From the NCBI GenBank assembly GCA_016218905.1, contig JACRCS010000872.1, positions 1 through 19,512 on the forward strand: DNA of 19,512 nt, read 5' to 3'. Under the pieces are notes generated by a model. It was not told the origin of the DNA and ran no database searches. It was given only the letters and a program-made list of their open reading frames with translations. Positions 1,415-19,512 of this stretch are shown piece by piece (the stretch's first letter is position 1; the number at the start of each line of letters is the position of its first letter). Origin of the DNA: Deltaproteobacteria bacterium (GTDB lineage Bacteria > Desulfobacterota_C > Deferrisomatia > Deferrisomatales > JACRMM01). Made by a program: the position numbers and the translations under genes.

Positions 1415-2176
1415 ATGCGGCCTTTCTTTTGCACCCATCTCGCTTTCCCTGATGAGATGGCAAAGGCAGTGCAAGCCACAGACGGCTTCAAGAGTGCCTT
1501 CGGCCGACTCGCTACCCACCCATACAACGAAGCCAATCCCGACAACAGTATCTGGTGGCTCTTTCCTCGCGGCCGCGGCCCACGCCAGAACTGGCCGGCG
1601 TACCACTGCGGGAAGTTCGTCTTCCTGCGCTCACGGGGGCAGGAGTCGATTCGGGTAGGCATTCACGTCGAGAAGGGCGTCGACAGCGCCTTGGGCTCTG
1701 CGCTGGGGACAGCGAGGGGCCGCCACTTTGTGATGACGGATAGGTGGATTTGGCAGAGCTTCCTGGCCGATCTCCGGACGGGAGCCTTTGACGACGCGCT
1801 CTCCGTCATTCGTGAACGCTCACTGGAAGGTCCGGAGCTTAGGTTTGACGTCGGGGTCCCACTCGACGAGCGAAGGTTGACGGAAGCTCGAACGCGATAC
1901 CGGTTTCGGAGCGCGTTCGGGGATCGGACCATTCTCGTATCACACGATCCGCAGCCGCACCCCGTCCCAGGTCTCGAGAGAGCCGAGACGCTCCCTCAAG
2001 TGGCAGAGCGCTTGGCCGCGTTTCACGACGGCGGGGGCGCCTTGCTCTGGATCGACTTAGTCGTCGGGCTCGACATTCCCGTTGACAGGAACGAGGGCGG
2101 CAGAGGTTGGGACGCCGGCGCGATTTGGAAGAACCTTCTGGAGCCGCTGGCGCCTTGGGTCCGCCCTGGCCCATGA
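1415..2176 (+). CDS. Unrecognised 253-aa protein at the head of the cluster
   Basis: I do not recognise this family. The start ATG has an AGGAGG-like ribosome site (about 1399-1404) ten bases upstream. The predicted protein is soluble, with no signal peptide or membrane segment. Visible points are a Trp-rich stretch near residue 45 (SIWWLFP), a central region with DRWIWQSFL, and a Gly-rich segment GGRGWDAG near the C-terminus. No zinc site, Walker motif or nuclease motif is evident. It ends 76 bases before the RecD-like gene and runs the same way, so the two may be co-transcribed. The match of reading frame, ribosome site and GC-rich codon use supports a real gene. Its role may be as an accessory or sensor protein of the downstream helicase system, which is inference from position only. 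Confidence 0.75.
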   Translation: MRPFFCTHLAFPDEMAKAVQATDGFKSAFGRLATHPYNEANPDNSIWWLFPRGRGPRQNWPAYHCGKFVFLRSRGQESIRVGIHVEKGVDSALGSALGTARGRHFVMTDRWIWQSFLADLRTGAFDDALSVIRERSLEGPELRFDVGVPLDERRLTEARTRYRFRSAFGDRTILVSHDPQPHPVPGLERAETLPQVAERLAAFHDGGGALLWIDLVVGLDIPVDRNEGGRGWDAGAIWKNLLEPLAPWVRPGP

Positions 2177-2240
2177 ACTCGAGGAGAGAGAAGAAGCATT
2201 GGGGGCCCGCGCACGTCCCAACTGAGGGCCTGAAACCAAA

Positions 2241-2246
2241 AGGAGG
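2241..2246 (+). promoter_or_regulatory. Ribosome binding site that fixes the start of the RecD-like gene
   Basis: AGGAGG, within AAGGAGGAG, lies six bases before the ATG at 2253. An in-frame TTG at 2250 would be only three bases from it. This favours the ATG at 2253 as the start, giving a protein of 1262 residues. Confidence 0.75.
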
Positions 2247-2252
2247 AGCTTG

Positions 2253-5200
2253 ATGTCGCAACTCGCGGAGGGAGCGAGGCAGCTTCCCGTCTCCCATATC
2301 TCGATTCGAGTCCCATGGCACGACGCAAAGTGGGACGGCACGGTCTGCAAGAAGCCGGGCCAGAACGCGGCTTGTCTCATTCTCCCACGCATCCGTGAGG
2401 GGAAGAAGGACGAGGCAGAGGTGAAGGTAGCCGGCCAGCAATGGGACGAAGCGCTACTTGAACAGAAGCTCCCGGCGTGCGCAGCGGAGCACGGATCTTT
2501 CCTGGCTCCCTTCGCCTTCACCCGCACGCTAACGCATCCGTACTATGGTAAGAGCAAGCTGCACGACCACTTTATGCCGACCGCTTATCGCCACACCGCG
2601 CATTCTGCGGCTTGCATCCCCTTCCGATGGATGCTGTCCGAGGGGACAGCGGAGATCGTCGACACCTTCGGCATCAACTTTCAACGGGAATTAGAGGAGA
2701 GAGCCCACGAAGGCATGGGCTTCGGTACGGGCTGGGTTCAAACCAAGAGGAACCAGCTGGCCCTCCTGGACACATTCTTTAGCGCGGTCCAGCCAAGAGA
2801 GTCCCTCTGCTTCTTCTACGCGAAACAGACTCCGCTGGTAGACGACCCTCGGCGGGTGATCGTCGGTGTCGGAAGGGTCATTCACGTCGGAGAATCCGTC
2901 GAGTACCGCTACGCGAAAGAGTCCCTTGGCATGCACAGGGCAGTGGTGTGGGAGCGCAACGTGGCACACTCGATCCGCTCCGACACTCTCAAGGATGGTT
3001 TCCTCCTTCCGTACCACGAACTGCTCGAAATCGCCGATCGAGACCCTGCCCTCAATCTCGCTGACTTCGTGGCGTTTGCGCCGGATGACGCATGGACAGA
3101 GTTCTCCTACGGGTCGGAGCACGTCGGACACGATGCGGCCATCTCGTCCCTTCTGGCCTGCGAGCGCGTCTTACACAAGGTTGGTGCGGTCTTGCCCGGA
3201 CCATGGGACGCGCTCACCAAGTGGGTGGACGCGGAACTGAATCGCCTTTGGACCATGCGCGGGCCTTGCCCGGGGCTGGGCTCGGCGCTCACGGCGTTCG
3301 GTCTCGGCAACGGGAACCTGATCGCACACGAGATCTCCCGCAGTCAGTTGGAGGCCAAGTCCGAGTGGAATGAGGACCCTTGGCCTCTGGTCGATCAGGT
3401 CTTCAAGGACCCCTCGCTTTTGGGACCGATCGCCGAGAAGTCCATCGGCGCCACCTTGAAGGATAAATGGGCGCAGCTGCCGGCAGAGCGCGCGGCCCTC
3501 CTCAAACTCCTCAGTCGATTCGCGATCACCGCGCCGCAGACGACGCGCTTCTACCAGCCCTCGGAGCGCGAGAAGGCCGGTATCGAGGCAACGGACGCGG
3601 AGATCCTTGAGAATCCCTACCAACTTTACGAACTCGATCGAGGCCGTTTCGACGGCGTGGGGATTCAAACCGTAGACCGCGGATTGTTCCCGGATCCTAT
3701 CGTCCGCGAGAAGCACCCCATACCTTCGCCGTCGGCTCTAGATGGAGACCAGGACGCTCGGCGGGTCCGCGCCTTGGTGACATACGTTCTCGAGGCCTCG
3801 GCCTCCGAAGGACATACGTTGCAGCCCAGGAGTGCGGTGATTCAGGCCATTCGGGATCTCCTCGTCGACCCTCCCTGTCCAGTCGACGCGGACCTGATGA
3901 ACGCGGTGGAAGCCAAGTTCGACGGGGTGGTATGCCGAGTCAAGATGGCGGACAACGCACCCGCCTACCAGCTTGGTCGCCTGAATGAGGCGAGCGAAGT
4001 GATCCGAAGGGTGGTGCAAAAGCGCATTCAGGGGATCCGCCATGAAGGCGAACACCCCTGGCGAAAGCTCCTCGACTCGGAATTTGAGAAGACACGTCCC
4101 GTGGCGTCGTTGCCTCCGGAGGAGCGGAAACTCGAGGAGATGGCCCGCAGAGAGAAGGCGGCGGCACTTCAGGAACTCTATGCCTCTCGGGTCTCCATCC
4201 TGGCCGGTCCCGCCGGGACCGGCAAGACGACGCTACTCAAAATCCTGTGCAACCTCCCGGAAGTGCGCGAGGGCGTGTGCCTCCTAGCGCCCACGGGAAA
4301 AGCTCGCGTGCGCATGGAGGGGCTGACCGGGGTCCACGGGGCGAAGACCATCGCGCAGTTTCTCCTCGGGCTCGGCCGCTACGATCCGCAGGGCGGTGGC
4401 TACCGTCTCTCGGATCGTCCAAAGAAGGCGGGCATTCAGACCCTCGTCGTGGACGAGGCATCCATGCTCACGGAAGAGATGCTGTCCGCCGTACTGGACG
4501 GCATACAGCCGCCGGACCGTGTCATCCTGGTGGGCGATCCCAGGCAACTCCCTCCCATCGGAAGCGGGAGGCCCTTCCTCGACATCGCTCGGAGACTCGC
4601 ACCCCAAGACATCGAAGGGCGCTTTCCCCGGGTCGCCCCCGGCTATGCCGAGCTCACTATCCGGCGCCGGCAGGTCGGGGAGAGACGTGATGATCTGATG
4701 CTCGCTGAGTGGTTCAGCGCCAGTTCACCGGAACCAGGCTGCGACGAGATCTGGGACAGCCTCGCACGCGGGGAGAGTTCCAAACACGTGCGGCTTGAGA
4801 GTTGGACGACAGACGAGGAGCTGCGAGAAAAACTCCTCCGGTGTTTGATCGAGGAACTCGAACTGAAGGGGATCGAAGACGAGGTCGGTTTCGAAGTGTC
4901 CTTGGGCGGTTCCCTCTATAACGGCGTGCCTTATTTCTGGGCCGGGCGCGACGGCAACCCGGGCGCCGCCGCTGCCGTCGAGAATTGGCAAATCCTTTCG
5001 CCGGTGCGCGGGGCGGCCCACGGGGTGGACGCTCTCAACCGGCTACTCCAAGAGAAGTTCCGAAGCCGCATCCGGGAGATGGCCGTGAACGAGGCCAAAG
5101 GGAAGCGCTTTTTTCCCAAGCCCCGAGGGCGGGAAGGCATCCTCTACGGCGACAAGGTCATCAACACGGTCAACAACTCGGGACGACACGTCTACCCCGA

Positions 5201-6041
5201 GCCGAGGGCCCTAAAGTACGTGGCGAACGGCGAGATCGGGGTTGTCGTCGGAGAGTACCGGACGAAGAAATGGGGGCTCAAGCGCGCTCCACGAGATCTC
5301 GAGGTGGAGTTCTCCACCCAGCCCGGTTTCAAGTACACCTACGGGGGAAGGGACTTCTCCGATGAAGGCGAGACGAGCCTCAGCCTCGCCTATGCACTCA
5401 CCGTGCACAAGACCCAGGGGAGCGAGTTTGGTGTCACGTTCCTCGTGGTGCCGAACCCTTGCCGACTGCTCTCCCGCGAGCTCTTGTACACGGCTCTGAC
5501 CCGCCAGAAGAACCGCCTTGTCTTGCTTTATCAGGGCGAATTCCAGTCCCTTCGCGCCTACAGCGACCCCTACTATTCCGACGCTGCCCGGCGTCTCACG
5601 AATCTCTTCGAGGCGCCGCGGCTCGTAGAGATTCGGGACCGCATGTTCGAGGAGGGGCTGATTCACAAGACTCGGCGCGGCGAGGCCGTACGGTCTAAGT
5701 CGGAGGTTATCATCGCCGACCTACTCCACTCAAAAGGCATCGACTATCAATATGAAAAAGAGCTCAAGGGTTTGGACGGCGCCAAGCGCGTGCCGGACTT
5801 CTTCATTGAAGATCGCGAATCCGGCAAGACGTTTGTCTGGGAGCACCTCGGTATGCTGCGCGATCCCCACTACCGCGCCTGCTGGGAGACCAAACTCGCG
5901 TGGTACCGCGCGCAAGGGTTCCTTCCCCTTGCCGAGGGGGGTGGCAAGGCGGGCACCCTGCTGGTGACCCAGGACGACACCAATGGGGGGATCGACTCGG
6001 CGGCCATCGAGAAGCTCGTCGGAGAGGTCTTCGGCGTATGA
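2253..6041 (+). CDS. RecD-like SF1 helicase with C-terminal PD-(D/E)XK-like nuclease domain
   Basis: The 1262-residue protein has three parts. Residues 1-640 are an N-terminal region I cannot assign; it starts with ISIRVPWHD and includes a predicted helical stretch. The RecD/UvrD-class SF1 motor follows: Walker A GPAGTGKT (652-659), DEAS Walker B (734-737), VGDPRQLPP motif III (760-768), a TVHKTQG motif (1050-1056) and YTALTRQ motif VI (1079-1085). The C-terminus (about 1145-1262) looks like a PD-(D/E)XK nuclease: E1151 after SKS, PDF with D1182, and WEHLG with E1197. The usual ExK lysine is replaced, and a later Lys may substitute. The likely activity is ATP-driven 5'-3' DNA unwinding coupled to cleavage. 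Its stop overlaps the next start (ATGA), so coupling with the RelE-UvrD gene is strong. It carries the only clear nuclease candidate in the window and could be the effector that destroys phage DNA, which is inference. The helicase assignment is firm, the nuclease assignment fairly so, and no standard gene name applies. Confidence 0.9.
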   Translation: MSQLAEGARQLPVSHISIRVPWHDAKWDGTVCKKPGQNAACLILPRIREGKKDEAEVKVAGQQWDEALLEQKLPACAAEHGSFLAPFAFTRTLTHPYYGKSKLHDHFMPTAYRHTAHSAACIPFRWMLSEGTAEIVDTFGINFQRELEERAHEGMGFGTGWVQTKRNQLALLDTFFSAVQPRESLCFFYAKQTPLVDDPRRVIVGVGRVIHVGESVEYRYAKESLGMHRAVVWERNVAHSIRSDTLKDGFLLPYHELLEIADRDPALNLADFVAFAPDDAWTEFSYGSEHVGHDAAISSLLACERVLHKVGAVLPGPWDALTKWVDAELNRLWTMRGPCPGLGSALTAFGLGNGNLIAHEISRSQLEAKSEWNEDPWPLVDQVFKDPSLLGPIAEKSIGATLKDKWAQLPAERAALLKLLSRFAITAPQTTRFYQPSEREKAGIEATDAEILENPYQLYELDRGRFDGVGIQTVDRGLFPDPIVREKHPIPSPSALDGDQDARRVRALVTYVLEASASEGHTLQPRSAVIQAIRDLLVDPPCPVDADLMNAVEAKFDGVVCRVKMADNAPAYQLGRLNEASEVIRRVVQKRIQGIRHEGEHPWRKLLDSEFEKTRPVASLPPEERKLEEMARREKAAALQELYASRVSILAGPAGTGKTTLLKILCNLPEVREGVCLLAPTGKARVRMEGLTGVHGAKTIAQFLLGLGRYDPQGGGYRLSDRPKKAGIQTLVVDEASMLTEEMLSAVLDGIQPPDRVILVGDPRQLPPIGSGRPFLDIARRLAPQDIEGRFPRVAPGYAELTIRRRQVGERRDDLMLAEWFSASSPEPGCDEIWDSLARGESSKHVRLESWTTDEELREKLLRCLIEELELKGIEDEVGFEVSLGGSLYNGVPYFWAGRDGNPGAAAAVENWQILSPVRGAAHGVDALNRLLQEKFRSRIREMAVNEAKGKRFFPKPRGREGILYGDKVINTVNNSGRHVYPEPRALKYVANGEIGVVVGEYRTKKWGLKRAPRDLEVEFSTQPGFKYTYGGRDFSDEGETSLSLAYALTVHKTQGSEFGVTFLVVPNPCRLLSRELLYTALTRQKNRLVLLYQGEFQSLRAYSDPYYSDAARRLTNLFEAPRLVEIRDRMFEEGLIHKTRRGEAVRSKSEVIIADLLHSKGIDYQYEKELKGLDGAKRVPDFFIEDRESGKTFVWEHLGMLRDPHYRACWETKLAWYRAQGFLPLAEGGGKAGTLLVTQDDTNGGIDSAAIEKLVGEVFGV

Positions 6042-8119
6042 CAGGCCCCTGGCTCACCACTATGAAGCCGACCTTCCAGACCGAGTGGCTCGCCCTGCCC
6101 CCTAAGGTGAGCCACCAAGTGCTGGAGAAGATCTCCCTCCTGGCGCAGGACCCCAGACCAGACGGCTTCACCAAGAAGAAGCTCAAGCACTTGGATGGCA
6201 AACTCCACCGCATCCGGTGCGGTGACTACAGGATCTTCTACACGTACGAAGACCCGTACGTGAGTCTGCTCGCGCTCCGCAAACGCGACGAGCGCACATA
6301 TGACGACGGTATCGACTCGGAGTTTCTGGGCGGTTTTGATCCGGCAATCGCGGGGAGCGCAAGGTCGAGGGGAGCTGATTGGGAGGCTCTCCTCAAACCC
6401 ACCACTCAGAGCAGCACTCCCTTGCCCGAAGAGATCACTCCGGAGCTTCTGAACCGGCTTCGAATTCCGGAAGCGCTTCACGCCCGGCTCACGCGGCTCG
6501 AGTCGCGAGAAGCGCTGTTCGAGTGCCCCGGGGTCCCAGAGGAGGTCATTCTGAAGGTCGACGAGGTCCTGTTCGAGCGACCGTTAGAAGAGGTAATCGA
6601 GCAACCAGACTACGTTGCGAATGACGTCTGTGACCTCTTGAGGTTCAAAGAGGGGAGCCTCCTCGGCTTCCTCCTCAAGCTGGATCCCGAGCAGAAGAAG
6701 TTCGTCACGTGGGCTCTCGACGCCAAGGGACCGACGCTGGTGAAAGGCGGTCCCGGAACGGGCAAGAGCACCGTCGCCCTCTACCGTGTGCGTTCCCTGC
6801 TGGAGGCGATCGGCAGGACCCGACCGCCCAGGGTGCTGTTCACCACCTACACTAACGCACTCGTTGCGTACTCGCATCAGCTCCTTGAGCAGCTCCTCGG
6901 CGCCGACGTCGACCGCGTTGACGTCCGCACAGCCGATAGCGTCGTCCATGCAGTAGTCCGACGGCACCTCGGCGAGTTCCGCATGATGCGCCAGGAGGAA
7001 GATCAGGCGTTCTTCCGTGACGCAGTGGAGAAGACGGACTTTGGAGGCGGAAGTCTGGCGCAGCGCTCGGAGCGCAGTGCCCTCGAAAGGCTGGGTCTCG
7101 ACTACATTTGGGAAGAAGTTGGGGAAGTGATCGAAGGAAGGGGCTTGGCGTTCCTGGATGACTACCTGCAAGCTCCTCGTGCGGGGCGCCGGGTCGCGCT
7201 CAATGCGAACCAGCGGCGCGCGGTCTGGAAGGTGAGGGAGACATACAACCGACTGCTCGAGCGGTCCGGCGACTGGACCTGGCAACGACTGCGTCTGCAT
7301 GCGGCGCGGCTCGTGCGGGAAGGAAAAGGACTTACACCCTACGACGCTGTTGTAGTCGATGAAGCCCAGGACCTCGATCCCATAACGCTAGGCATGCTTT
7401 CGAGCCTTTGTCGCGAGCCGAACCGGCTCTTCATTACTGCCGACGCCAATCAGTCGATCTACAGGAGCGGCTTCCGTTGGTCCGACGTTCACGAGTCGCT
7501 GCAGTTTCGAGGTCGCACCGGCATTTTGCGAACCAACCACCGCTCGACTGCCGAGATTGGGGAAGCCACAGCGGGTTACCTGGGGGGCGGGAACGTCGAA
7601 GCAGGGTCAGGTGAGGAACGGAGATACAGCCACTCCGGACCTCTCCCGGCAGTGAGAACCGTCGGAACGGAAGACGCCGAGGCGGCGTTGCTTGCCCGGT
7701 TCTTCCCGGCTGCCTCGCGGGAGCTTCGACTTGGGATCTCCGCCTGCGCTGCTCTCGTGCCCACGCAGACAGCGGGGCAGGCGCTCGCACGGCGGCTATC
7801 CGAGAAGGGGCTGCCGGTCGAGTTCATGACCGGTAAGACCCTCGAGTTGGAGAAACCTGTGGTGAAGGTGCTCACCTTCAAGAGCGCCAAGGGGCTGGAG
7901 TTTCCGGTCGTCGCCCTCGGGGGTTTCGTTCTCTCCAGGTACCCGCGCATCCCCGGAGATTTCGCAGAAGAAGCGACGGCCGAATGGCTTGCCCGCGAAC
8001 GCCGATCCCTCTTCGTAGCGATGACACGCGCCATGCACGCGCTGCTCGTAGTCCTACCCGAGGGTCGCGCCGAGCCGTTGTTCGAAGGCTTCGACAGGAA
8101 GCTGTGGAACCTCGCATAG
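6038..8119 (+). CDS. RelE/ParE-like domain fused to a UvrD-type SF1A helicase
   Basis: The start ATG overlaps the previous stop (ATGA), giving 693 residues; a second ATG at 6062 is an alternative. Residues about 9-95 match the RelE/ParE toxin fold, with the typical HRIRCGDYRIFYTYED strand pair. A linker of about 130 residues follows (TPELLNRLRIP, DLLRFKEGSLLGFLLKLDPEQ). The UvrD/Rep helicase core then has Walker A GPGTGKS (238-244), DEAQD (441-445), DANQSIYR (470-477), RTNHRS, TFKSAKGLEF (613-622) and LFVAMTRA (658-665). All key motor residues are present, so it should be an active 3'-5' translocase. In this fusion class the RelE-like part may act as an RNA- or ribosome-binding or a regulatory module; whether it cleaves RNA is unknown. 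No antitoxin gene is adjacent, which argues against a simple toxin-antitoxin pair. It sits between the RecD-like helicase and the PLD-like gene on one strand and probably belongs to the same system. Confidence 0.9.
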   Translation: MTGPWLTTMKPTFQTEWLALPPKVSHQVLEKISLLAQDPRPDGFTKKKLKHLDGKLHRIRCGDYRIFYTYEDPYVSLLALRKRDERTYDDGIDSEFLGGFDPAIAGSARSRGADWEALLKPTTQSSTPLPEEITPELLNRLRIPEALHARLTRLESREALFECPGVPEEVILKVDEVLFERPLEEVIEQPDYVANDVCDLLRFKEGSLLGFLLKLDPEQKKFVTWALDAKGPTLVKGGPGTGKSTVALYRVRSLLEAIGRTRPPRVLFTTYTNALVAYSHQLLEQLLGADVDRVDVRTADSVVHAVVRRHLGEFRMMRQEEDQAFFRDAVEKTDFGGGSLAQRSERSALERLGLDYIWEEVGEVIEGRGLAFLDDYLQAPRAGRRVALNANQRRAVWKVRETYNRLLERSGDWTWQRLRLHAARLVREGKGLTPYDAVVVDEAQDLDPITLGMLSSLCREPNRLFITADANQSIYRSGFRWSDVHESLQFRGRTGILRTNHRSTAEIGEATAGYLGGGNVEAGSGEERRYSHSGPLPAVRTVGTEDAEAALLARFFPAASRELRLGISACAALVPTQTAGQALARRLSEKGLPVEFMTGKTLELEKPVVKVLTFKSAKGLEFPVVALGGFVLSRYPRIPGDFAEEATAEWLARERRSLFVAMTRAMHALLVVLPEGRAEPLFEGFDRKLWNLA

Positions 8120-8163
8120 GCCGATGCCCACGCTCCCGGTCCCGCGAAGGCGTCTCTTGGTCT

Positions 8164-8170
8164 GAGGAGG
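8164..8170 (+). promoter_or_regulatory. Ribosome binding site of the PLD-like gene
   Basis: GAGGAGG ends five bases before the ATG at 8176. It selects this start over open-frame starts further upstream, which would overlap the UvrD gene by more than 100 bases. Confidence 0.7.
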
Positions 8171-8175
8171 CAGGA

Positions 8176-9414
8176 ATGCTGACAGAGAACGCAATGGCAG
8201 TCGCGAACGATGCGACGCTGACGGACTTCATACGCGCTGCGCGGCGCCGCCTGGTCGTGCTCGCGCCGGCGGTCACGAAACCAGTTGGGGAGGCCGTGGC
8301 GGAGCGCTGGAGGAGCTTGGGTCCTGAGGCCGTGTCGGTGATCCTGGACCCGGACCCCGAGGTCTACCGCCTCGGTTACGGTGACGCCGAGGGGCTCCAG
8401 ATCCTGGAGAGCGCCGCACTGGAGGTTGGGGGGCGGCTCACGAGACAATTCGGGTTGCGAATCGGCTTGGTGATCAGCGATGACCTCACCCTCATCTTCT
8501 CTCCCACGCCCCAGCTCATCGAGGCAGGGCCGCGCAATCCCGAAGCGCCGAATGCCGTCCTCATGGGAACTCCGCCAGCTCAGGTGGCGCGAGAGTTGGG
8601 CCTCGGGCCCGAGGGCAAGAAGGCGCAGACGATAGGACTCGAGCCGGTTTCCACGCATTCCGTTGGCGCATTGAGGAAGGATTTGGAGTGCAACCCGCCT
8701 CAGAGTTTTGACGTCGCACGCAAAGTGATGGTGTTCAATTCCTACTTCGAATTCGTCGACTTCTCTCTCTCTGGAACCCACATCGACCGCAAGATTGTTC
8801 GTATTCCGCCGGAGCTCCTGGGGCTGACCGACAGCGAGGATGCGAAGGAGCGCATGAGGGCTTCGTTTAAGCTCATCGCGCCCGACGATGCTCTTTCGGG
8901 AAAGGACCTGGAAACGTACAAGACAGATATAACCAAGATATTTCTACGAAATGTACCAAACTTCGGGACGGTGCTGCCCCGCGCCAAGAAACAGCAGTTC
9001 TTGGAGAGAGTGGAGAAATTAAGGGCCGCAGTCGAGGTCTTCCGCACGAAGGTAATCGCCAATCTTCAAGAAGCGATGGACCGGAATCGGGAGCAGCTCA
9101 AAGGGGCACTTCTGCCCGCTCTGCGCCAAAATCCACCCCGGCGTTGGCGTGAGCCTGGAGGTGAGCCGTACCCGCGCGACTTCATCGAAAAGCTCTTGGA
9201 TGAAGAACTCCGAAGGGCCTTCGGCCAAGCGGAGGCACTGGTCGGACGCATGGAAGTCAAGCTCGTCATCAAGGGCGTGACGTACGAGCTGTTGAAGGAC
9301 AAGGACTTCTTGGAAGCCGTCGCGAAGGCTTTGCCGGAGATGAAGACCTTCTACGACGAGCGTCTCGCGGCCGAGGGTACGTCACCGAAGCAGGCGAGCC
9401 TCTCCTTCCACTGA
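8176..9414 (+). CDS. PLD-like protein with degenerate HKD motif
   Basis: The 412-residue protein starts with a segment whose strand-helix order resembles one phospholipase D half-domain: TDFIRAARRRLVVLAP, then a region ending QFGLRIGLVISDDLTLIFSP. Where active PLD nucleases have H-x-K-x4-D, this protein has R95-x-G97-x4-D102, so His and Lys are lost and only Asp remains. No second HKD is visible. The centre has an FNSYFEFVDFSLSG segment, and the C-terminal half is rich in charged helices (about 255-320), likely coiled coil. The likely role is DNA binding or scaffolding, not cleavage. In DISARM the PLD protein is DrmC; this one lies upstream of drmD and differs in length and motif, so I do not call it drmC. 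It begins 56 bases after the UvrD gene and ends 14 bases before the SNF2 gene. The fold call is inferred from motifs; function is open. Confidence 0.72.
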   Translation: MLTENAMAVANDATLTDFIRAARRRLVVLAPAVTKPVGEAVAERWRSLGPEAVSVILDPDPEVYRLGYGDAEGLQILESAALEVGGRLTRQFGLRIGLVISDDLTLIFSPTPQLIEAGPRNPEAPNAVLMGTPPAQVARELGLGPEGKKAQTIGLEPVSTHSVGALRKDLECNPPQSFDVARKVMVFNSYFEFVDFSLSGTHIDRKIVRIPPELLGLTDSEDAKERMRASFKLIAPDDALSGKDLETYKTDITKIFLRNVPNFGTVLPRAKKQQFLERVEKLRAAVEVFRTKVIANLQEAMDRNREQLKGALLPALRQNPPRRWREPGGEPYPRDFIEKLLDEELRRAFGQAEALVGRMEVKLVIKGVTYELLKDKDFLEAVAKALPEMKTFYDERLAAEGTSPKQASLSFH

Positions 9415-9417
9415 GCC

Positions 9418-9423
9418 AAGGAG
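9418..9423 (+). promoter_or_regulatory. Ribosome binding site for the GTG start of the SNF2 gene
   Basis: AAGGAG lies five bases before a GTG codon at 9429, four bases after the PLD-like stop. It supports the GTG as the true start even though the codon is not ATG, and shows tight coupling of the two genes. Confidence 0.7.
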
Positions 9424-9428
9424 TTCCC

Positions 9429-12722: not shown

Positions 12723-15700
12723 CAGTAGCAACAGCGTCGCGGTCACTCCGGAGCGGATCTCTCTCTACGTCTCTGCCCGACTTGGACGCCTGCTGGGCCT
12801 CGCTCAAGCACGGGGGCCTGCTCATCGCCCCGGCGAAACTCTCCGAATATTTTCCATCGGCGGCGGACCCCCTGGCGCCGCACGTCACTGAGAAGCTGCG
12901 GCGCGACCTGGTCCGGCCCTTGGAGGTTACGCCGGGAAAGTGGCAGGCGGGAGGCCTCCTCGACACAGTTCTCGAAGACGTACTGGGGCTGCCGGCGACC
13001 CAGTGGTCCAAGGGTAGCACCCTCGGGCCGGAGTGGTCCCACCGCGCCGTGACGGGCGAGGTCGTCCGGCCGCGCCGCGTATGGGGGGGGGCAACCGGCG
13101 GGCTCCTGCCCGTGTTCATCGCCGACCGGACGGGGCAGGGCGAACCGGGCTCCCGTCTCGGTGTAGGTCGGGGCCGCAGAGCCGTATCGCGTGTGGTCGA
13201 GTGGATGCGCCGGGCGGACCAGAAGCTCGCTCTCCTCACGAATGGCCGCCAATGGAGGCTCTTGCACGCCGGCCCCGACTACGACGCTTGGGCCGAGTGG
13301 GACGTGGACCTCTGGTTCGAGGAAGGGGAGCCCGGACCGCAGGTCACCGCCCTGCGGACGCTACTTGGCCCACGCGCGCTCACCCCGCCAAAGGAAGGCG
13401 AACCCTCTCCCCTTTTGGCGGCCGTGCTGGCGAGCCGAAGGGGGCAGGCGGAGTTGTCCTCGGTTCTCGGGGAGCGCGTCCGCCAAGCCGTCGAGCTCCT
13501 CGTGCGGGAGTCCCACGAGGTCTTGGAGCCGTTGGAGAAGGCGGGTTCCGAGCGGGTGCCGCGGAGGGACCTCTATCTCGCCGCGACCCGCGTCGTGATG
13601 AGGTGTGTGGTCCTACTCTTTGCTGAGGCCAGGGGTCTCCTCCCGCGGGATAACCCGATCTACAACGACTCCTACGGCGTTCAGGGGCTTCGCGAACAAC
13701 TCGACCGGCTGGCCGGCGGCAGGGCTGCGGAACGTCTGCGGCACCACTTCGGTGCCTGGCCGAGACTCCTGGCGCTCTTCCGCCTCGTGTACCAGGGCTC
13801 CGGGCACGAGGCGCTGCCCGTGTCACGCTACGGGGGAGGCCTCTTCGCGCCCGGCGAGCGGGATTCGGGGGACCCGGTGGCCCGCGCCTTGGCGGCCTTC
13901 GAGAGCCCGACCAACGAACTCTCCGACGCCTCCGTTCACAAGATTCTGGAACTCCTCACCCGAAGCCGGGTCAAGGTCCGGTCCGGGCGATCGGCGCGGT
14001 GGGTGGAAGCCCCGGTGGACTTCTCCGACCTCTCCTCCGAGTACATCGGCATCCTCTACGAGGGTCTCCTCGACTACGAACTGCGTCGGGCCGAAGCCGG
14101 CGATCCGATGGTCTTTCTGAACGTTGGGGACCAGCCGGTGCTGCCGTTCTCCCGCCTTCTCGCCATGGAGGACAGGGACCTCGCCCAGTTGCTGGAAAAG
14201 CTCCAGAAAAGCACCCGCGCCGCGGCTTCCGAGGGAGAGGAGGGAGAAGAAGGGGAAGAGGAGGAGGCCGAGCCGGAGGACGACGAAGAGGTTGCCGACC
14301 TGGAAGAGGCGGCTGCGGAGCCGGAGGAGGGATACGGCTCGGACGCCAGGCATGAGCTTCAGGAAAAGGTCCAAGCCTGGGCGGAGCGCGCCGTGAAAGC
14401 GGCGAAGCTCATCAAGGCTCCGCGAGGCAAGGGGATCGAAGCCACCTACGAGCGCGACGTGCAGGTCTTGGCCCACTCCCTCAGCGCGCGGGTGGTCTTG
14501 CCGGGGGAGTGGTTCCTGGTCCGCTGGGGCGGCACCCGCAAGGGCGCGGGAACGTTCTACACCCGCCCCCAACTCGCCGGTCCGACAGTTCGGCGCACGC
14601 TTCAGCCCTTGGTCTACGCGCCGGCACTCCAGCACACCGACGAGAAGACCGGGCTTACCGAGGTGGCGCGCTGGACCCCACGACCTCCCGAGCAGATCCT
14701 TCGCCTCAAAGTCTGCGATCCCACGATGGGATCGGGGTCGTTCTTGGTCGCTGCCCTTCGATACTTGACCGACGCCCTCGTGGAGAGCCTCTTTCATCAC
14801 AGCTGGCTCGAAGAAAGCGATGGGGAACTTCGGGTCATTGTGCCGCCCGAGGCCCGGCCGCCTTGGTTCGCCGAGTGCGTACGGGACCTGCCCGTCGGCG
14901 TCGAGAACCCTGAGGCGCATCTTCGCCCGCGCTTGAAGCGCCACCTCGTGGAGCGGTGCCTCTACGGGGTCGACCTCGACCCCATGGCAGTGGAGTTGGC
15001 GCGTTTGTCGCTCTGGGTAGAGACGATGGACGAGAAGCTCCCCTTCGAGTTTCTCGACCACAAGCTCAAGTGCGGCGACTCCATGGTAGGGTGCGGGTTC
15101 GACCGGTTCCGGGACTACCCCATCCTGGCGTGGGAGCGCGAGGGTGGCGACAAGGCCCACGACCGTTTTGTGCACCACTTTCGGGAATCCGTCGCCCAGC
15201 GAGGGAAGAACAAAGGGCAGGCGATCCGGAGCGGCGACCCCTGGACCCAGGCCATCAAGGACCGCCTCGCCGAAAAGGTGAAGCCCGAACTACGGGCCTG
15301 GGTCTCGACGCAACGGGAAGATCGGCTGGCCTTCGAGCACACCGGCGTTACCTCCGACGCGCTCCACGACCGCGCCCTCGCGCTCTTCGAGGAGCTCCAT
15401 GGCCTGGCCCTCCATGAAGCCGATCGCCGGGCTGAGTTCTACCGAGATAGGATTCTAGGCGACCCAGACTTCCAGGCGCTGAAAGAGGCCTTCGACCTCT
15501 GGTGCGCCCTCTGGTTCTGGCCCGGCGATGCCCTCGACAGCGCTCCGACGCCGAAGACTTTCCTTAAGCCCTCTCCCGAAGCCCGCGAGACTGCGGGGCA
15601 GCTCACCGCGAAGCACCGCTTCTTCCACTGGGAGTTGGAGTTTCCCGACGTCTTCACAGGCCCTGGAGCAGGGTTCCACGCCATGGTCGGGAACCCTCCG

Positions 15701-17254
15701 TGGGAGGTCCAAAAGCCGAACTCCCGGGAGTTCTTCTCCAACGTCGATCCCCTATACCGGACCTACGGCAAGCAGGAGGCCCTGGCGCGTCAGACCGAGA
15801 TCTTCGAGAACAGCCCCGCGGTCGAGACGGAGTGGGTGGCCTACTGCGCACGATTGAAGGCCCTCTCCAATTGGGCGAAGCACGCAGGCCATCCCTTCGG
15901 CGACCCTGAAGAAGGCGAGCACGCCTTCAGCTTCAGTCGATCGAGTGCAGAGAATGGGGCGCTCCACAAGGCGTGGCGCGCCCGTCGCAGGAAGCGCGGC
16001 GGTTACGCCGATCCGGATCACCCATTCCTCCACCAAGGCTCGGCCGACCTCAACACCTACAAGCTGTTCCTCGAAGTTGCGCACGCCCTCCTCGAACCAG
16101 GTGGCCGTCTCGGCTTCCTGGTCCCATCGGGCCTGTACACCGACAAAGGTTCCAATGGGCTTCGCACGCTTTTCTTAAAGCGCTGTTCCTGGGAATGGCT
16201 CTTCGGGTTCATCAACTGGAACAAGATCTTCGGCGCGATCTACTATCGGTTTAAGTTCGCCATCACCGTCGTTCAGAAAGGCGGCACCACCCGCGTGATT
16301 CGATCGGGCTTTTCACGGGTGCAAGTGGAGGACTGGGAAGACGCGGGACGTCACGCGCTTGCCTACCCTCGAGAGCGCGTGCAGGAATTTAGCCCCCGCT
16401 CGCAGGCGATCTTGGAGATCCGAGGGGAGCGGGATCTGGAGGTGCTCGGCAAGCTTTACCGAAACGGCGTGCTCCTGGGCGACGACGGGCCTGATGGCTG
16501 GGGAGTTCGGTACGCCCGCGAATTCGATATGACCAATGACTCCAAGCTCTTTCCCCCGCGGCCCACTTGGGAGGCCAAGGGCTACGCACCGGACGAGTAC
16601 GGCCACTGGCTCAAGGGACCTTGGGCGCCTTGGGACGGTCCACGTTCGATCCTGAAACGCCTCGACGGGTTGATACTCTCCGCCGACGGAAAGGAGTGCC
16701 TTCGAGTCGACGAGATCGAGGACGTAGCATTGCCGTTGTATGAAGGCCGAATGGTCGGCCAGCTCGACTTCAGTGAGAAGGGATGGGTTAGCGGAAAAGG
16801 AAGAGGGGCGGTTTGGCGGGAGATCCCTTGGGACGTGAAAATCCTTGAACCGCAATATCTCATGGCGGCTTCGACGGCGAACTATGGAAGTCGCTCAGTA
16901 CTGGGGAAAGTTGGCTTTCTCGCGATCGGATCGGCTACGAATTCAAGATCTATGGTCGCTTGTCAGATTTCCGGCCTCCCTTGCGGTAATTCGGTAGGTA
17001 CGTTGCTCATTAGAGAGGATATCAAGGATCGATCCATGGGCCTTGTATGTGTATTGAATAGCCTCTCATATGATTTTGGACTGCGCAGCCGGCTTGGCGG
17101 ATTGAATCTCAACTACTTCGTAATAGAAGAGACTTCCGTATTGGGCCCCAATGCCATCACAGTAAACCATGGTCTGCGGGTAGCTGGGCAGAGCCTCATT
17201 TTGGCGAGCGTGCACTTTGCCAAGGTGGTCCACTCTGTCGCGGACCTTCCCTGA
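12719..17254 (+). CDS. drmMI: Eco57I/type IIG-like adenine-N6 methyltransferase, DrmMI-like (main part)
   Basis: The 1511 in-frame residues include the SAM motif DPTMGSGSF (667-675), GVDLDP (750-755), and the catalytic motif NPPW (992-995), the N6-adenine methylase form of NPPY. The N-terminus resembles type IIG enzymes, including a K/R-GAGTFYTRP segment before the methylase core, but I see no clear PD-(D/E)XK site, so it looks methylase-only. An acidic linker (about 504-542, almost all E/D/G/A) divides the N-terminal part from the methylase core. The end of this frame (about 1375-1495) resembles a TaqI/Eco57I target-recognition domain (LNSLSYDFGL, GLNLNYFVIEE). The frame stops at 17252-17254, but the usual C-terminal region continues in another frame (see 17217-17906). 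It overlaps drmD by ATGA. Its expected role is marking host DNA at a specific site so the rest of the system ignores it. The methylase call is secure; the drmMI name is by context. Confidence 0.87.
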   Translation: MTVATASRSLRSGSLSTSLPDLDACWASLKHGGLLIAPAKLSEYFPSAADPLAPHVTEKLRRDLVRPLEVTPGKWQAGGLLDTVLEDVLGLPATQWSKGSTLGPEWSHRAVTGEVVRPRRVWGGATGGLLPVFIADRTGQGEPGSRLGVGRGRRAVSRVVEWMRRADQKLALLTNGRQWRLLHAGPDYDAWAEWDVDLWFEEGEPGPQVTALRTLLGPRALTPPKEGEPSPLLAAVLASRRGQAELSSVLGERVRQAVELLVRESHEVLEPLEKAGSERVPRRDLYLAATRVVMRCVVLLFAEARGLLPRDNPIYNDSYGVQGLREQLDRLAGGRAAERLRHHFGAWPRLLALFRLVYQGSGHEALPVSRYGGGLFAPGERDSGDPVARALAAFESPTNELSDASVHKILELLTRSRVKVRSGRSARWVEAPVDFSDLSSEYIGILYEGLLDYELRRAEAGDPMVFLNVGDQPVLPFSRLLAMEDRDLAQLLEKLQKSTRAAASEGEEGEEGEEEEAEPEDDEEVADLEEAAAEPEEGYGSDARHELQEKVQAWAERAVKAAKLIKAPRGKGIEATYERDVQVLAHSLSARVVLPGEWFLVRWGGTRKGAGTFYTRPQLAGPTVRRTLQPLVYAPALQHTDEKTGLTEVARWTPRPPEQILRLKVCDPTMGSGSFLVAALRYLTDALVESLFHHSWLEESDGELRVIVPPEARPPWFAECVRDLPVGVENPEAHLRPRLKRHLVERCLYGVDLDPMAVELARLSLWVETMDEKLPFEFLDHKLKCGDSMVGCGFDRFRDYPILAWEREGGDKAHDRFVHHFRESVAQRGKNKGQAIRSGDPWTQAIKDRLAEKVKPELRAWVSTQREDRLAFEHTGVTSDALHDRALALFEELHGLALHEADRRAEFYRDRILGDPDFQALKEAFDLWCALWFWPGDALDSAPTPKTFLKPSPEARETAGQLTAKHRFFHWELEFPDVFTGPGAGFHAMVGNPPWEVQKPNSREFFSNVDPLYRTYGKQEALARQTEIFENSPAVETEWVAYCARLKALSNWAKHAGHPFGDPEEGEHAFSFSRSSAENGALHKAWRARRRKRGGYADPDHPFLHQGSADLNTYKLFLEVAHALLEPGGRLGFLVPSGLYTDKGSNGLRTLFLKRCSWEWLFGFINWNKIFGAIYYRFKFAITVVQKGGTTRVIRSGFSRVQVEDWEDAGRHALAYPRERVQEFSPRSQAILEIRGERDLEVLGKLYRNGVLLGDDGPDGWGVRYAREFDMTNDSKLFPPRPTWEAKGYAPDEYGHWLKGPWAPWDGPRSILKRLDGLILSADGKECLRVDEIEDVALPLYEGRMVGQLDFSEKGWVSGKGRGAVWREIPWDVKILEPQYLMAASTANYGSRSVLGKVGFLAIGSATNSRSMVACQISGLPCGNSVGTLLIREDIKDRSMGLVCVLNSLSYDFGLRSRLGGLNLNYFVIEETSVLGPNAITVNHGLRVAGQSLILASVHFAKVVHSVADLP

Positions 17255-17906
17255 GCTGAAGAGGAAACCGTGGCGGGGTCGGTGGGCGATTTCGCCATTA
17301 GAGCGGATGCGCTTGCGTTGCATTCTGGAAGCCAGCATCGCCGCACTTTATGGTCTGGAAGAAGATGAGTTTGGGTGGGTTCTTCATAACTGTGATCAGC
17401 CAGTGGACCGGCTCAATAACAGGGACTTCTACCGTACTCTCGACCCCAAGGGTTTCTGGCGCGTGGACAAAGAGAAGCCACCCGAACTTCGCCACACGGT
17501 GCTCTCCTTGGTCGCTTTCCACGACTTGAAGCACCTGGGACTTCAGGCCTTTCTGGAGCAGAACGACGGCGAGGGATGGATGCTGCCCCAGCGGCTTCGA
17601 CTGGCGGACTACGGCCTCGGCCACGACGAGCGGGCTCGCGAGTTTCAACCTGTCGCGAGTTGCTTGGGGGAGCGCCTCTTTCCGTGGCAGCTCGATCAGG
17701 GCGTGGAGGAGTCATGGGAGGAGTGCGAGCGGCACGCCGCGCTCATCGAGAAGATCGTTCCCATCCCGGCATTAGAGGCAGCGCCCCAGAGGCCCGAGCC
17801 GAAGGCGACGATGACGCCCGTGGCGGGGAAGACCGATCTCCTGGGGAAACCGCTACCGACGGACCTGTTTGGAAACGTGATCTATCCGAAGACGAGGAAG
17901 AGGTGA
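17217..17906 (+). CDS. Out-of-frame C-terminal part of the adenine methyltransferase
   Basis: This 229-residue frame lacks a start of its own with a ribosome site (TTG at 17217; the first ATG is at 17307). It begins in the segment RWSTLSRTFPELKRKPW and goes on with ERMRLRCILEASIAALYGL, which matches my memory of the C-terminal tail of Eco57I-like methylases just after the target-recognition domain. The preceding gene needs this tail and lacks it. This frame is open back to 17184, so the shift lies between 17184 and 17254; a net change of one inserted or two deleted bases joins them into about 1728 residues. The tail also holds DPKGFWRVDK and ends with TDLLGKPLPTDLFGNVIYP. It is best read as part of drmMI, either frameshifted in nature or by assembly error. 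A separate small gene is less likely. Confidence 0.72.
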   Translation: MPRWSTLSRTFPELKRKPWRGRWAISPLERMRLRCILEASIAALYGLEEDEFGWVLHNCDQPVDRLNNRDFYRTLDPKGFWRVDKEKPPELRHTVLSLVAFHDLKHLGLQAFLEQNDGEGWMLPQRLRLADYGLGHDERAREFQPVASCLGERLFPWQLDQGVEESWEECERHAALIEKIVPIPALEAAPQRPEPKATMTPVAGKTDLLGKPLPTDLFGNVIYPKTRKR

Positions 17907-17949
17907 GGGAGCGAACCTGGACGAGAGGTTCAACACTACAAGTGGGGGC

Positions 17950-17990
17950 AACTGGCCCATAGCGGGGGACGAAGGTCCTGAGGGCCAGTT
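17950..17990. repeat. Perfect 9-base inverted repeat in the gap before the last helicase gene
   Basis: AACTGGCCC (17950-17958) and GGGCCAGTT (17982-17990) are exact inverse complements separated by 23 bases. This lies in the 159-base gap between the methyltransferase tail and the DEAH helicase, the longest gap in the cluster from 1415 on. No T run follows the right arm, so it is not an obvious terminator. A regulator site or an RNA stem that reduces or tunes expression of the following gene is possible. Confidence 0.4.
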
Positions 17991-18056
17991 AGTGCACGGC
18001 CGACACTCTTGGAACCAAACAGGCTGGGGAGCCCCCATCCGCCTTTCAGACGAACC

Positions 18057-18062
18057 GGGAGG
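18057..18062 (+). promoter_or_regulatory. Ribosome binding site of the last helicase gene
   Basis: GGGAGG lies three bases before the ATG at 18066, closer than usual. I see no ATG or GTG start in frame in the roughly 50 bases upstream, so this start is preferred despite the short spacing. Confidence 0.5.
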
Positions 18063-18065
18063 CCC

Positions 18066-19512
18066 ATGCTGAATCCGATTACCTATGCCGAGAAGACGGT
18101 CGGCGACTTCTTGCGCTATCAGCTCAGCGCGTATCCGTTCGCAGACGCAGACCTCCACGCCCAGATGCGAGCGCTCTTGAGCCTGGAGCAGACCCGCGCG
18201 ACACCGCTCATGAAGGGGCCGTACGTGAGTCTGAGTCGCTCGTTTCGGCAGGGAGCTACGGTCAAGGACTTAGTGGCCGAGGGGATTCTGCACCCGCACC
18301 TAGCGACGTTGGCGCCGTATTCGTCGGTCTACGGGCACCAGGAGAAGGCGATTCGCGCCATCCAATCGGGGAAGCCGACGCTGGTGTCGACCGGCACCGG
18401 TTCAGGCAAGACCGAGTGCTTCCTGTACCCGATCATCAGCCGCTGTCTGGAACTCCGGGATGAGGGCTCGCCTGAGGGGGTGGTGGCGGTGGTTGTGTAC
18501 CCGATGAATGCCCTGGCCGAAGACCAACTCACCCGGCTCCGGGGGCTCCTCGCGGGGAGCGGCATCAGTTTCGGTATGTATGTAGGAAAGACCCCGGAGA
18601 AGACGAAAGACGTCACGGGTGTGCGTCTGCCTGCCGGGGCGTCGAAGGCCGACTACCTGTCGGCGCTCGAGAAAGCCGTCCAGCAGAAGCAGACCCGCGC
18701 CGTGCACCCTCCCGAGGAGCGCGTCTCGCGGGAGCAGATGCGCATCCCGGGTCAGCAACCTCGGATCCTTCTCACTAACGTCAAGCAGCTCGAACTCCTC
18801 CTGACCCGCCAGAAGGACGTGGAGCTCTTCGACGGGTCACAACTCGACTTCCTCGTGTTCGACGAGGCGCACACCTTCAGCGGCGCCAACGGCGCCGAAA
18901 CGGCCTGCCTAATACGGCGCCTGAGGGCCTTTTGCGCCCGGGGGCCAGAAGACACGGTCTGCGTGGCAACTTCAGCCACCATCGCTGACCCAGATCGGGG
19001 GCCGGAAGCGGGGCGGGACTTCGCGGCGCGTTTTTTTGGTGTGGACGGCGAGGCCGTGGAATTGGTGAGCGAGGAGTACGCACCCGACCTCTGGGCGGAG
19101 GAGCGGACCACCACGCCTGGGCTGCCGGGCGACCCAGCGGTGCAGCTTCAGAACGTACTCGAGGCGGTGGGCGGGGTGGCGCAGGAACCACCCGAACCTC
19201 ACGCACTGAAGCAGCTGAAAGCTGTGTTCCAGACCATGACGGGGTCACCGCTGGATCTCAAGCGGTGGCAGGAGAGCCTCTACGACCGCCTCTCGTCCAA
19301 TGAGGTGGTTTTCCAAATTGCCCAAGCGTTGGAGAAGCCGCGGCCTCTCGCGGCCTTGTTGGCTGAGCTCGCCGAGAACCTGGGGCGTACGGTCCCCGAG
19401 GAGGAGGTCCGGGCGTGGCGCGCCCTGGGCGCGGCGTCGCGCAGGGGCGGACGCCCCCTGCTCCGTCCGGTGGGGCACGCCTTCGTGCGGGGTGTGGACG
19501 GAGCGGTCGTCG
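18066..19512 (+). CDS. DEAH-box SF2 helicase, DrmA/DruE/YprA-like; 3' end outside the window
   Basis: The frame is open to the last base, giving 482 residues of a larger protein. It has a Q-motif-like YGHQEKAI before the Walker A motif GTGSGKT (110-116), then VVYPMNALAEDQ (motif Ia), DEAH (266-269) and SATI (303-306). This is one complete RecA lobe of a large SF2 helicase. The region after it ends in LLRPVGHAFVRGV, which resembles the segment before the second RecA lobe in DUF1998-associated YprA/DrmA/DruE-type helicases. In class 1 DISARM the gene after drmMI is drmA, so context suggests drmA; a DruE-like single-chain helicase with its own DUF1998 domain is the alternative, and the missing C-terminus would decide. 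In DISARM, DrmA with DrmB binds DNA with a free 5' end and helps detect phage DNA. Here the first domain shows all key ATPase residues. Confidence 0.85.
   Translation, partial: MLNPITYAEKTVGDFLRYQLSAYPFADADLHAQMRALLSLEQTRATPLMKGPYVSLSRSFRQGATVKDLVAEGILHPHLATLAPYSSVYGHQEKAIRAIQSGKPTLVSTGTGSGKTECFLYPIISRCLELRDEGSPEGVVAVVVYPMNALAEDQLTRLRGLLAGSGISFGMYVGKTPEKTKDVTGVRLPAGASKADYLSALEKAVQQKQTRAVHPPEERVSREQMRIPGQQPRILLTNVKQLELLLTRQKDVELFDGSQLDFLVFDEAHTFSGANGAETACLIRRLRAFCARGPEDTVCVATSATIADPDRGPEAGRDFAARFFGVDGEAVELVSEEYAPDLWAEERTTTPGLPGDPAVQLQNVLEAVGGVAQEPPEPHALKQLKAVFQTMTGSPLDLKRWQESLYDRLSSNEVVFQIAQALEKPRPLAALLAELAENLGRTVPEEEVRAWRALGAASRRGGRPLLRPVGHAFVRGVDGAVV

What the first reader, a model, noticed from the sequence alone, without database searches (positions are those of the whole stretch)
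1415..19512. Extended DISARM-like defence cluster with four extra upstream proteins
The sequence shows seven large same-strand genes with overlaps (ATGA twice) and short gaps: unknown protein, RecD-like helicase-nuclease, RelE-UvrD, degenerate PLD-like protein, SNF2, adenine methylase, DEAH helicase. Class 1 DISARM is known as drmD-drmMI-drmA-drmB-drmC. The last three genes fit its start, while the first four are not part of it. The tight linkage of genes 2 to 6 implies one larger system that may use four motors (SF1 twice, SF2 twice). I have a vague memory of proposed DISARM-related arrays with more helicases but cannot confirm membership, so this may be a variant of a described family.
Basis: partly seen in the sequence, partly recalled or inferred. 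Interest (0 to 1): 0.85.

Follow-up and report, generated by a model that had tools for sequence, protein, structure and literature searches.

The report
ARMADA-like defence cluster with plug-in genes
A metagenomic DNA fragment carries a three-gene antiviral system that mixes parts of two known types, preceded by three accessory genes whose relatives turn up beside several other DNA-modification-based defence systems, so it looks like a modular variant of a known kind and not one new fixed machine.

Summary
The seven same-strand genes and both ATGA overlaps are real; the contig ends inside gene G, and gene F is frameshifted near 17,225. The core E-F-G (SNF2 helicase, adenine methylase, YprA-type helicase) is not plain DISARM: E groups with DISARM DrmD, but G falls with fused YprA helicases (ARMADA/Druantia), away from DrmA. 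The core recurs at about 46-61% identity (longest aligned pieces) in Synechocystis sp. B12 and in a phylum judged to be Acidobacteriota, without A-D where visible. B, C and D look like portable accessories. B (RecD plus PD-(D/E)xK-like motif) lies between hsdM and hsdS in two genomes. C (RelE-like plus UvrD, like ArmD) also occurs in ARMADA-like, BREX and Dpd loci. D (degenerate PLD fold, no named family) lies near type I R-M, BREX, Hma or SNF2/methylase/YprA genes in 23 of 37 genome loci (24 counting a weak hit), against 1 of 20 control windows. No other examined locus joins B with C or D. 'One larger conserved system' is therefore not supported; three plug-ins stacked on a hybrid core is. 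ARMADA is known (2025 preprint). New here: the E-F-G hybrid lineage and the spread of the D family.

The parts
137..535 (-). RadC-like JAB domain ORF on the opposite strand; left border, not part of the system
   Evidence: Pfam RadC 146.5 bits
1415..2176 (+). Gene A, 253 aa (start may be 1457), rare unknown protein
   Evidence: No family match; 4 proteins found including the window's own; model pLDDT 75 without a convincing fold match
2253..6041 (+). Gene B, 1262 aa: RecD-like SF1 helicase with C-terminal PD-(D/E)xK-like motif (PDF...WEHLG), PADLOC PDC-S68
   Evidence: PDC-S68 1573 bits; Walker A and WEHxG present in 119 and 116 of the 120 family proteins held, the window's own included
6038..8119 (+). 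Gene C, 693 aa: RelE-like domain fused to UvrD/GajB-like helicase, the architecture described for ArmD of ARMADA type II
   Evidence: UvrD Pfam hits and sub-threshold Gp49; 142 bits to E. coli ArmD over the UvrD part only; 36% over 709 aa to a Pseudanabaena protein
8176..9414 (+). Gene D, 412 aa: degenerate PLD domain (residues 1-160) plus long-helix C-terminal part
9429..12722 (+). Gene E, 1097 aa: SNF2 helicase of the DrmD lineage
   Evidence: NCBIfam DISARM_DrmD 694 bits, cut-off 610; tree 100/100 with four DISARM DrmD
12719..17254 (+). Gene F, first frame, 1511 aa: Eco57I/type IIG-like adenine methylase with DPTMGSG and NPPW motifs; frameshifted near its 3' end
   Evidence: PDLC03622 1370 bits; motifs; frameshift shown by single-frame relative
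17217..17906 (+). C-terminal remainder of gene F in another frame
   Evidence: Matches PDLC03622 positions 1330-1506
18066..19512 (+). Gene G (first 482 aa, cut by contig end): YprA/DruE/ArmC-type DEAD/DEAH helicase
   Evidence: DEAD Pfam 84.9 bits; ArmC 142 and DruE3 120 bits; tree separates it from DrmA 100/100

Best explanation
The window holds an antiviral core of the DISARM/ARMADA kind, E-F-G, with three accessory proteins B, C and D placed upstream on the same strand. Inferred working: F methylates host DNA to mark self. E, an SNF2 translocase, and G, a YprA-type helicase (in relatives fused to an MZB/DUF1998 domain and a C-terminal nuclease-like region), find and process unmarked invading DNA. 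B unwinds and probably cuts DNA from ends or branched intermediates. C couples a UvrD motor to a RelE-like RNase as a second-line effector. D, an inactive PLD fold with a coiled coil, is most likely a DNA-binding or adaptor subunit. B, C and D are portable: relatives sit in or beside the operons of several methylation-linked systems, so this locus is a stack of plug-ins on a hybrid core, not one fixed seven-gene machine. Shown: gene content, order, families, predicted fold of D, contexts of relatives. Inferred: every biochemical step, and that the parts act together. F is frameshifted in this contig, so this copy may be inactive unless that is a sequencing error.
For: E = DrmD lineage. G lies with fused YprA proteins, away from DrmA. 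E. coli ARMADA ArmA/B/C/D match E/F/G/C at 202/121/142/142 bits. Core without A-D: Synechocystis B12 and L099-L103. B between HsdM and HsdS in L058 and L059 (PADLOC for HsdM in both and HsdS of L058; HsdS of L059 by own HMM). C in BREX (L082), cyanobacterial ARMADA-like loci (L080, L081) and a Dpd locus (L090, 28% over 678 aa). D in BREX-1 between pglX and pglZ (L076), BrxC-D-methylase (L015), type I R-M (L026, L023), Hma-like (L001, L038) and ARMADA-like loci (L013, L029, L030). On the same criterion 24 of 37 D loci (23 if a weak opposite-strand hit is dropped) against 1 of 20 control windows carry a core family. Each of the four ARMADA genes was needed in E. coli (PMC12458937, section 6).
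Against: 13 or 14 of 37 D loci show no such neighbour (4 of the 14 are contigs under 5 kb). 9 of 14 B places show none of the families tested on their strand (4 of the 9 are partial genes or at contig ends). In two of the 23 D loci the partner genes are on the opposite strand (L016, L020). The neighbour HMMs were partly seeded from these same loci, and the 20 controls come from only 4 genomes; one control has a YprA-type hit (correcting the 0 of 20). F is not clearly of DISARM type: nearest rows by path are Haloquadratum and Thermus. The window is the only case seen with B-C-D in a row. F is broken and G incomplete here.
Confidence: 0.7

Rival explanations
1. One obligate seven-gene (or B-G six-gene) defence system with four motors.
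For: Same strand, ATGA overlaps at B/C and E/F, short gaps C/D and D/E. C and D both recur with ARMADA-type genes in 3 of 37 D loci (L013, L029, L030).
Against: 0 of 14 B places examined carry C, D or F, and 0 of 37 D loci carry a full-length B. The E-F(-G) core recurs without A-D.
Confidence: 0.1
2. Two or more independent systems side by side in a defence island: stand-alone B (PDC-S68), a C/D pair, and the E-F-G core, with no shared function.
For: PADLOC lists B as a candidate of its own. At 9 of 14 places B has none of the tested families as a same-strand partner, including plasmids L071, L073 and L074.
Against: B/C overlap by ATGA and C-D-E follow within 56 and 14 bp. Relatives of B and D lie inside operons of host systems, for example pglX-D-pglZ and HsdM-B-HsdS.
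Confidence: 0.17
3. An ordinary class 1 DISARM whose drmB and drmC lie beyond the contig end.
For: E passes the DISARM DrmD cut-off and F matches a DrmMI model at 450 bits. E groups with DISARM DrmD; F joins DISARM methylases at 87/99, not a starred fork.
Against: G has no phmmer match at E 10 to three DrmA proteins and is separated from them 100/100. In two complete relatives G is one 1983-1991 aa protein with the MZB (DUF1998) domain fused, while DISARM splits DrmA and DrmB (L087).
Confidence: 0.03

Closest known systems
ARMADA type II (ArmA-ArmB-ArmC-ArmD; Bell et al. 2025 preprint, PMC12458937)
   Same: SNF2 helicase, adenine methylase, YprA-type helicase in the same order, plus a RelE-UvrD protein
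   Different: C lies upstream, not after G; E groups with DrmD and not ArmA; B and D are additional. 'RecD' has 0 occurrences in that paper's main text; its supplements were not seen
ARMADA type I, reversed order of archaea and cyanobacteria (PMC12458937)
   Same: Helicase and methylase genes precede the YprA gene; Haloquadratum L083 and Pseudanabaena L081 show a similar order, their type not tested
   Different: Window G and B12 G form their own pair. Two relatives of G have a C-terminal Peptidase_S24 domain; 'peptidase' and 'S24' have 0 occurrences in the paper's main text
Class 1 DISARM (drmD-drmMI-drmA-drmB-drmC)
   Same: E is of the DrmD lineage; F unresolved between DISARM and ARMADA-type methylases
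   Different: G is not DrmA
PADLOC PDC-S68 candidate
   Same: B is a full-length member, 1573 bits
   Different: 0 papers of the library hold the term PDC-S68. Here it starts a longer same-strand cluster
Hma / BREX-related (BR) systems (PMC12839542)
   Same: Close relatives of D lie in E-D-HmaB(-DUF499) loci
   Different: The window has no HmaB or DUF499 gene. The paper lists embedded auxiliary nucleases; UvrD and RecD, whole-word RelE and 'inactive HKD' have 0 occurrences in its main text

Membership tests
Class 1 DISARM | DrmD SNF2 helicase | tested here: met
   694 bits against cut-off 610; tree 100/100 with four annotated DrmD; a fifth PADLOC DrmD (L067) falls elsewhere on a long branch
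Class 1 DISARM | DrmMI methylase | tested here: inconclusive
   DrmMI 450 bits but a type IIG model 1370 bits; joins DISARM methylases at 87/99, while nearest rows by path are Haloquadratum and Thermus
Class 1 DISARM | DrmA helicase separate from DUF1998 DrmB | tested here: not met
   G is not a DrmA by phmmer and tree; two relatives are fused to MZB
Class 1 DISARM | DrmC PLD nuclease downstream | not testable with these tools
   Contig ends inside G; no genome held
ARMADA | SNF2, methylase and fused YprA-type helicase together | tested here: met
   fusion seen only in relatives
ARMADA | YprA protein inside the ARMADA clades | tested here: inconclusive
   Separate pair with Synechocystis B12 among ARMADA and Druantia branches, relation unresolved
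ARMADA | ArmA-lineage SNF2 helicase | tested here: not met
   E groups with DISARM DrmD; E. coli ArmA lies in another group
ARMADA type II | RelE-GajB gene following the YprA gene in strict order | tested here: not met
   C lies upstream of D-E-F-G
ARMADA | Vsr-type nuclease at the YprA C-terminus | not testable with these tools
   G cut by the contig end; relatives show a PD-(D/E)xK-like stretch by eye only and a Pfam S24 domain after it
PDC-S68 | Full-length match to the family profile | tested here: met
   Positions 4-1219 of 1221, 1573 bits
PLD (HKD) nucleases | Catalytic HxK(x)4D motif | tested here: not met
   At a place of the same spacing R is kept in 76 of 76, G in 74 of 76, D in 76 of 76; HxKx4D occurs anywhere in 1 of 76
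PLD (HKD) nucleases | PLD fold | tested here: met

The most novel reading that the evidence does not exclude
B, C and above all D belong to a general class of portable subunits that dock on DNA-modification complexes whatever the system (type I R-M, BREX, Hma, ARMADA, Dpd) and add a second response. The core here belongs to a separate lineage, DrmD-type helicase with a fused YprA helicase-nuclease that ends in a LexA/UmuD-like S24 self-cleaving domain (seen in two relatives), so that DNA damage during infection could switch the nuclease on or off by self-cleavage.
Probability: 0.25. Interest if true: 0.8.

Novelty: new variant of a known kind. Interest (0 to 1): 0.55.

Why it matters
If the plug-in reading is right, one protein family without a name (D) links type I restriction, BREX, Hma and ARMADA through a shared docking role, which makes a common mechanism of methylation-based immunity testable. 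It also gives a rationale for PDC-S68 and for ArmD-like proteins outside ARMADA. The E-F-G lineage combines a DISARM-type helicase with an ARMADA/Druantia-type one. In two relatives the YprA helicase carries a Peptidase_S24 domain, which would be an unusual way to control a defence nuclease.

Tried and rejected
Own genome: none held, so downstream genes could not be seen. Plasmid megablast with window 9000-19512: no match. Viral contigs with B: nothing; with F: 598 pattern stretches, none a relative. Gene A: 4 proteins, model pLDDT 75, best PDB match E 0.27, so no fold assigned; its place in the system stays open. RNA genes: none found. Promoters/terminators 1000-2400: none found. Repeats: nothing that bears on the finding. 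Family search with B in 16 genomes of D loci: 10 places in 8 genomes, taken as ordinary RecD-like matches and not counted as B, best 1.6e-41. PDC-S68 in papers: 0. S24 of a relative among solved structures: one chance-like match, E 0.042; NCBIfam none; the S24 assignment rests on Pfam scores of 29.2 and 25.4 bits (cut-off 23.3) and a GKSMEP stretch. The whole D model (412 residues) was searched, so the part after about residue 168 is barely tested. F/F2 split as programmed frameshifting: not supported, since the Synechocystis relative has this region in one frame; a sequencing error cannot be excluded. The control count (0 of 20) used only non-overlapping called ORFs and missed one hit; one search recounted with all ORFs (1 of 20), and the D and B loci likewise. 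The zero (0 of 398) came with the tool's warning that nothing rang anywhere, so it does not show absence. Papers: PMC12458937 abstract, passages, sections 5, 6, 8, 26; PMC12839542 abstract, outline, passages; PMC13192584 passages; all other papers were seen as search listings only.
Full report
Observation. The window is a whole 19,512-base contig (one search gives 19,512 as the longest contig of the window's own protein; no genome held). Seven large + strand genes are present: A 1415-2176, B 2253-6041, C 6038-8119, D 8176-9414, E 9429-12722, F 12719-17254 and G 18066 to the end. B/C and E/F share ATGA; C/D and D/E gaps are 56 and 14 bp. Gene F is broken: PADLOC profile PDLC03622 is matched to position 1144 in the best stretch of the first frame and from 1330 to 1506 by ORF 17217-17906, while the Synechocystis sp. 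B12 relative covers both in one frame. To the left a RadC domain lies on the opposite strand.

Core E-F-G. A tree of the SNF2 core puts E with Synechocystis B12, L020 and four annotated DISARM DrmD proteins (100/100), apart from E. coli ArmA; a fifth protein with a strong PADLOC DrmD match (L067) falls elsewhere on a long branch. G has no phmmer match to three DrmA proteins, is separated from them at 100/100, and pairs with Synechocystis B12. On its side lies also a helicase beside a DISARM drmD (L084), on a long branch that the tool flags. F falls with DISARM methylases at 87/99 only, not a starred fork, and its nearest rows by path are Haloquadratum and Thermus, so F is unresolved. The core thus mixes a DISARM-type SNF2 helicase with an ARMADA/Druantia-type helicase. 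The F family was found in 0 of 398 genomes of one phylum (judged Pseudomonadota; the tool warns that nothing rang) and 5 of 199 of another (judged Acidobacteriota from the title of the anchoring locus) at E 1e-120. Of these five loci (all fetched), four show E (one only its end), two show G within the stretch, and one starts inside F. No A, B, C or D was found in the five; one 38.9-bit hit of C lies within the E helicase of L100. The upstream side is visible in three. The B12 plasmid has E-F-G without A-D in 49 kb. Between F and G the relatives carry other inserts: a PIN gene (L079), AbiEii (L100), a methylase and GmrSD (L103), and in L101 a reverse-transcriptase gene follows F.

Contexts of D. 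A scan of the genome collection (84,980 species) gave 37 loci, and viral contigs gave 4 (the genome scan used one peptide pattern, so it is not exhaustive). Using HMMs of neighbour families, 23 of 37 lie near methylation-linked systems: 10 with SNF2, IIG methylase or YprA genes (L010, L012, L013, L020, L021, L024, L029, L030, L034, L037), 6 Hma-like (L001, L002, L004, L005, L006, L033), 5 type I R-M (L003, L016, L023, L026, L028) and 2 BREX (L015, L017). In L016 and L020 the partners are on the other strand. 14 are not counted (L007, L008, L009, L011, L014, L018, L019, L022, L025, L027, L031, L032, L035, L036); L007 has an 85-bit methylase hit on the other strand, which makes 24 on the bare criterion, and L007, L022, L032 and L035 are under 5 kb. 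Viral: 3 of 4 (L039 and L040 share their genes). Plasmids: 1 of 2, namely pglX-D-pglZ in an Acinetobacter towneri BREX-1 locus. Several key neighbours were named by independent profiles. Control on the same criterion with all ORFs: 1 of 20 windows of 20 kb from 4 genomes carries a core-family hit, a YprA-type one (one search had given 0 because overlapping ORFs were left out). The HMMs were seeded partly from the D loci, which favours the count.

Contexts of B. B was found in 3 of 240, 3 of 246 and 4 of 398 genomes (phyla judged Verrucomicrobiota, Planctomycetota and Pseudomonadota from the anchoring loci; a further phylum did not complete) and on 5 plasmids. Contexts were seen for 14 of these 15 places, one of them only in 3.2 kb (L055). 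HsdM-B-HsdS in 2 (L058, L059); B then a YprA-type gene in 1 (L060); an SNF2 gene on the same strand in 2 (L067, L072); no same-strand partner of the tested families in 9 (L055, L061, L062, L068, L069, L070, L071, L073, L074; L070 has an SNF2 fragment on the other strand; L055, L061, L062 and L070 are partial genes or at contig ends). None of the 14 has C, D or F.

Contexts of C. Plasmid search gave 6 hits, all fetched: two cyanobacterial SNF2-methylase-...-C-YprA loci (L080, L081), one BREX locus with C between brxC and an N-6 methylase (L082), one Dpd locus (L090, 28% over 678 aa), one without defence neighbours (L089) and one unannotated record with only a 56-bit HsdM hit on the other strand (L091). 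E. coli ArmD is the type II ARMADA member (L078), and a Thermus plasmid has SNF2-methylase-YprA-C (L092; its match to C covers the UvrD part).

Reading. B, C and D each recur inside or beside methylation-linked defence operons but not as a set of three. The window stacks them upstream of a hybrid core. The known literature fits this reading: ARMADA needs each of its four genes, including the RelE-UvrD one (PMC12458937 section 6), and BREX and BR loci carry embedded auxiliary nucleases (PMC12839542, passages). The joint function proposed here is inference.

Extra result. Two complete relatives of G (1983 and 1991 aa, L125 and L124) have DEAD, Helicase_C and MZB domains and a C-terminal Peptidase_S24 match of 29.2 and 25.4 bits (cut-off 23.3), which E. 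coli ArmC lacks. Both keep a GKSMEP stretch and a later YTVK lysine region; reading these as a Ser-Lys pair is recalled knowledge of S24 peptidases. The corresponding stretch of the B12 record shows no such domain by eye in the frames printed, though that record is frame-broken. The window ends before this region. 'Peptidase' and 'S24' have 0 occurrences in the main text of PMC12458937.

Verdict. A real, modular variant of the DISARM/ARMADA kind. It is not filed as DISARM (DrmA split not met) or ARMADA type II (order and ArmA lineage not met), though it probably works like them.

Noticed in passing
window 137-535 (-): RadC-like JAB domain ORF on the opposite strand at the left end.
   Followed up: no
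window 17205-17906: Frameshift in the methylase gene F; the remainder runs on in another frame.
   Followed up: partly
L125:4058-10009 (-) and L124:282-6257 (+): YprA-type helicases, relatives of G, with a C-terminal Peptidase_S24 domain after a nuclease-like stretch.
   Followed up: partly
L029 and L030, about 5000-11340: MkoA- and MkoB-like genes (Mokosh) inside a methylase-...-D-YprA-RelE-UvrD operon (PADLOC for L029; L030 by clustering).
   Followed up: no
L101:1444-5475 (-): A 1343 aa reverse-transcriptase-domain gene downstream of the E-F pair, where others have G.
   Followed up: no
L100:2491-3552 (-); L103:5355-7711 (+): AbiEii-type gene, and a methylase plus GmrSD gene, between F and G in relatives.
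   Followed up: no
L028:8323-9510: SMODS cyclase (CBASS-like) gene close to D inside a type I R-M locus.
   Followed up: no
L010:11260-16080: TmtA-like protein with Sacsin and NO VEIN C-terminal domains directly after D in an SNF2-methylase operon.
   Followed up: no
L079:23145-27620: IS701 transposase gene within the methylase region and many frame breaks in the closest relative plasmid.
   Followed up: partly
L074:9968-14966: A PDC-S68 relative lies beside a Qnr-family gene on a Vibrio fluvialis IncC plasmid.
   Followed up: no
   Followed up: no
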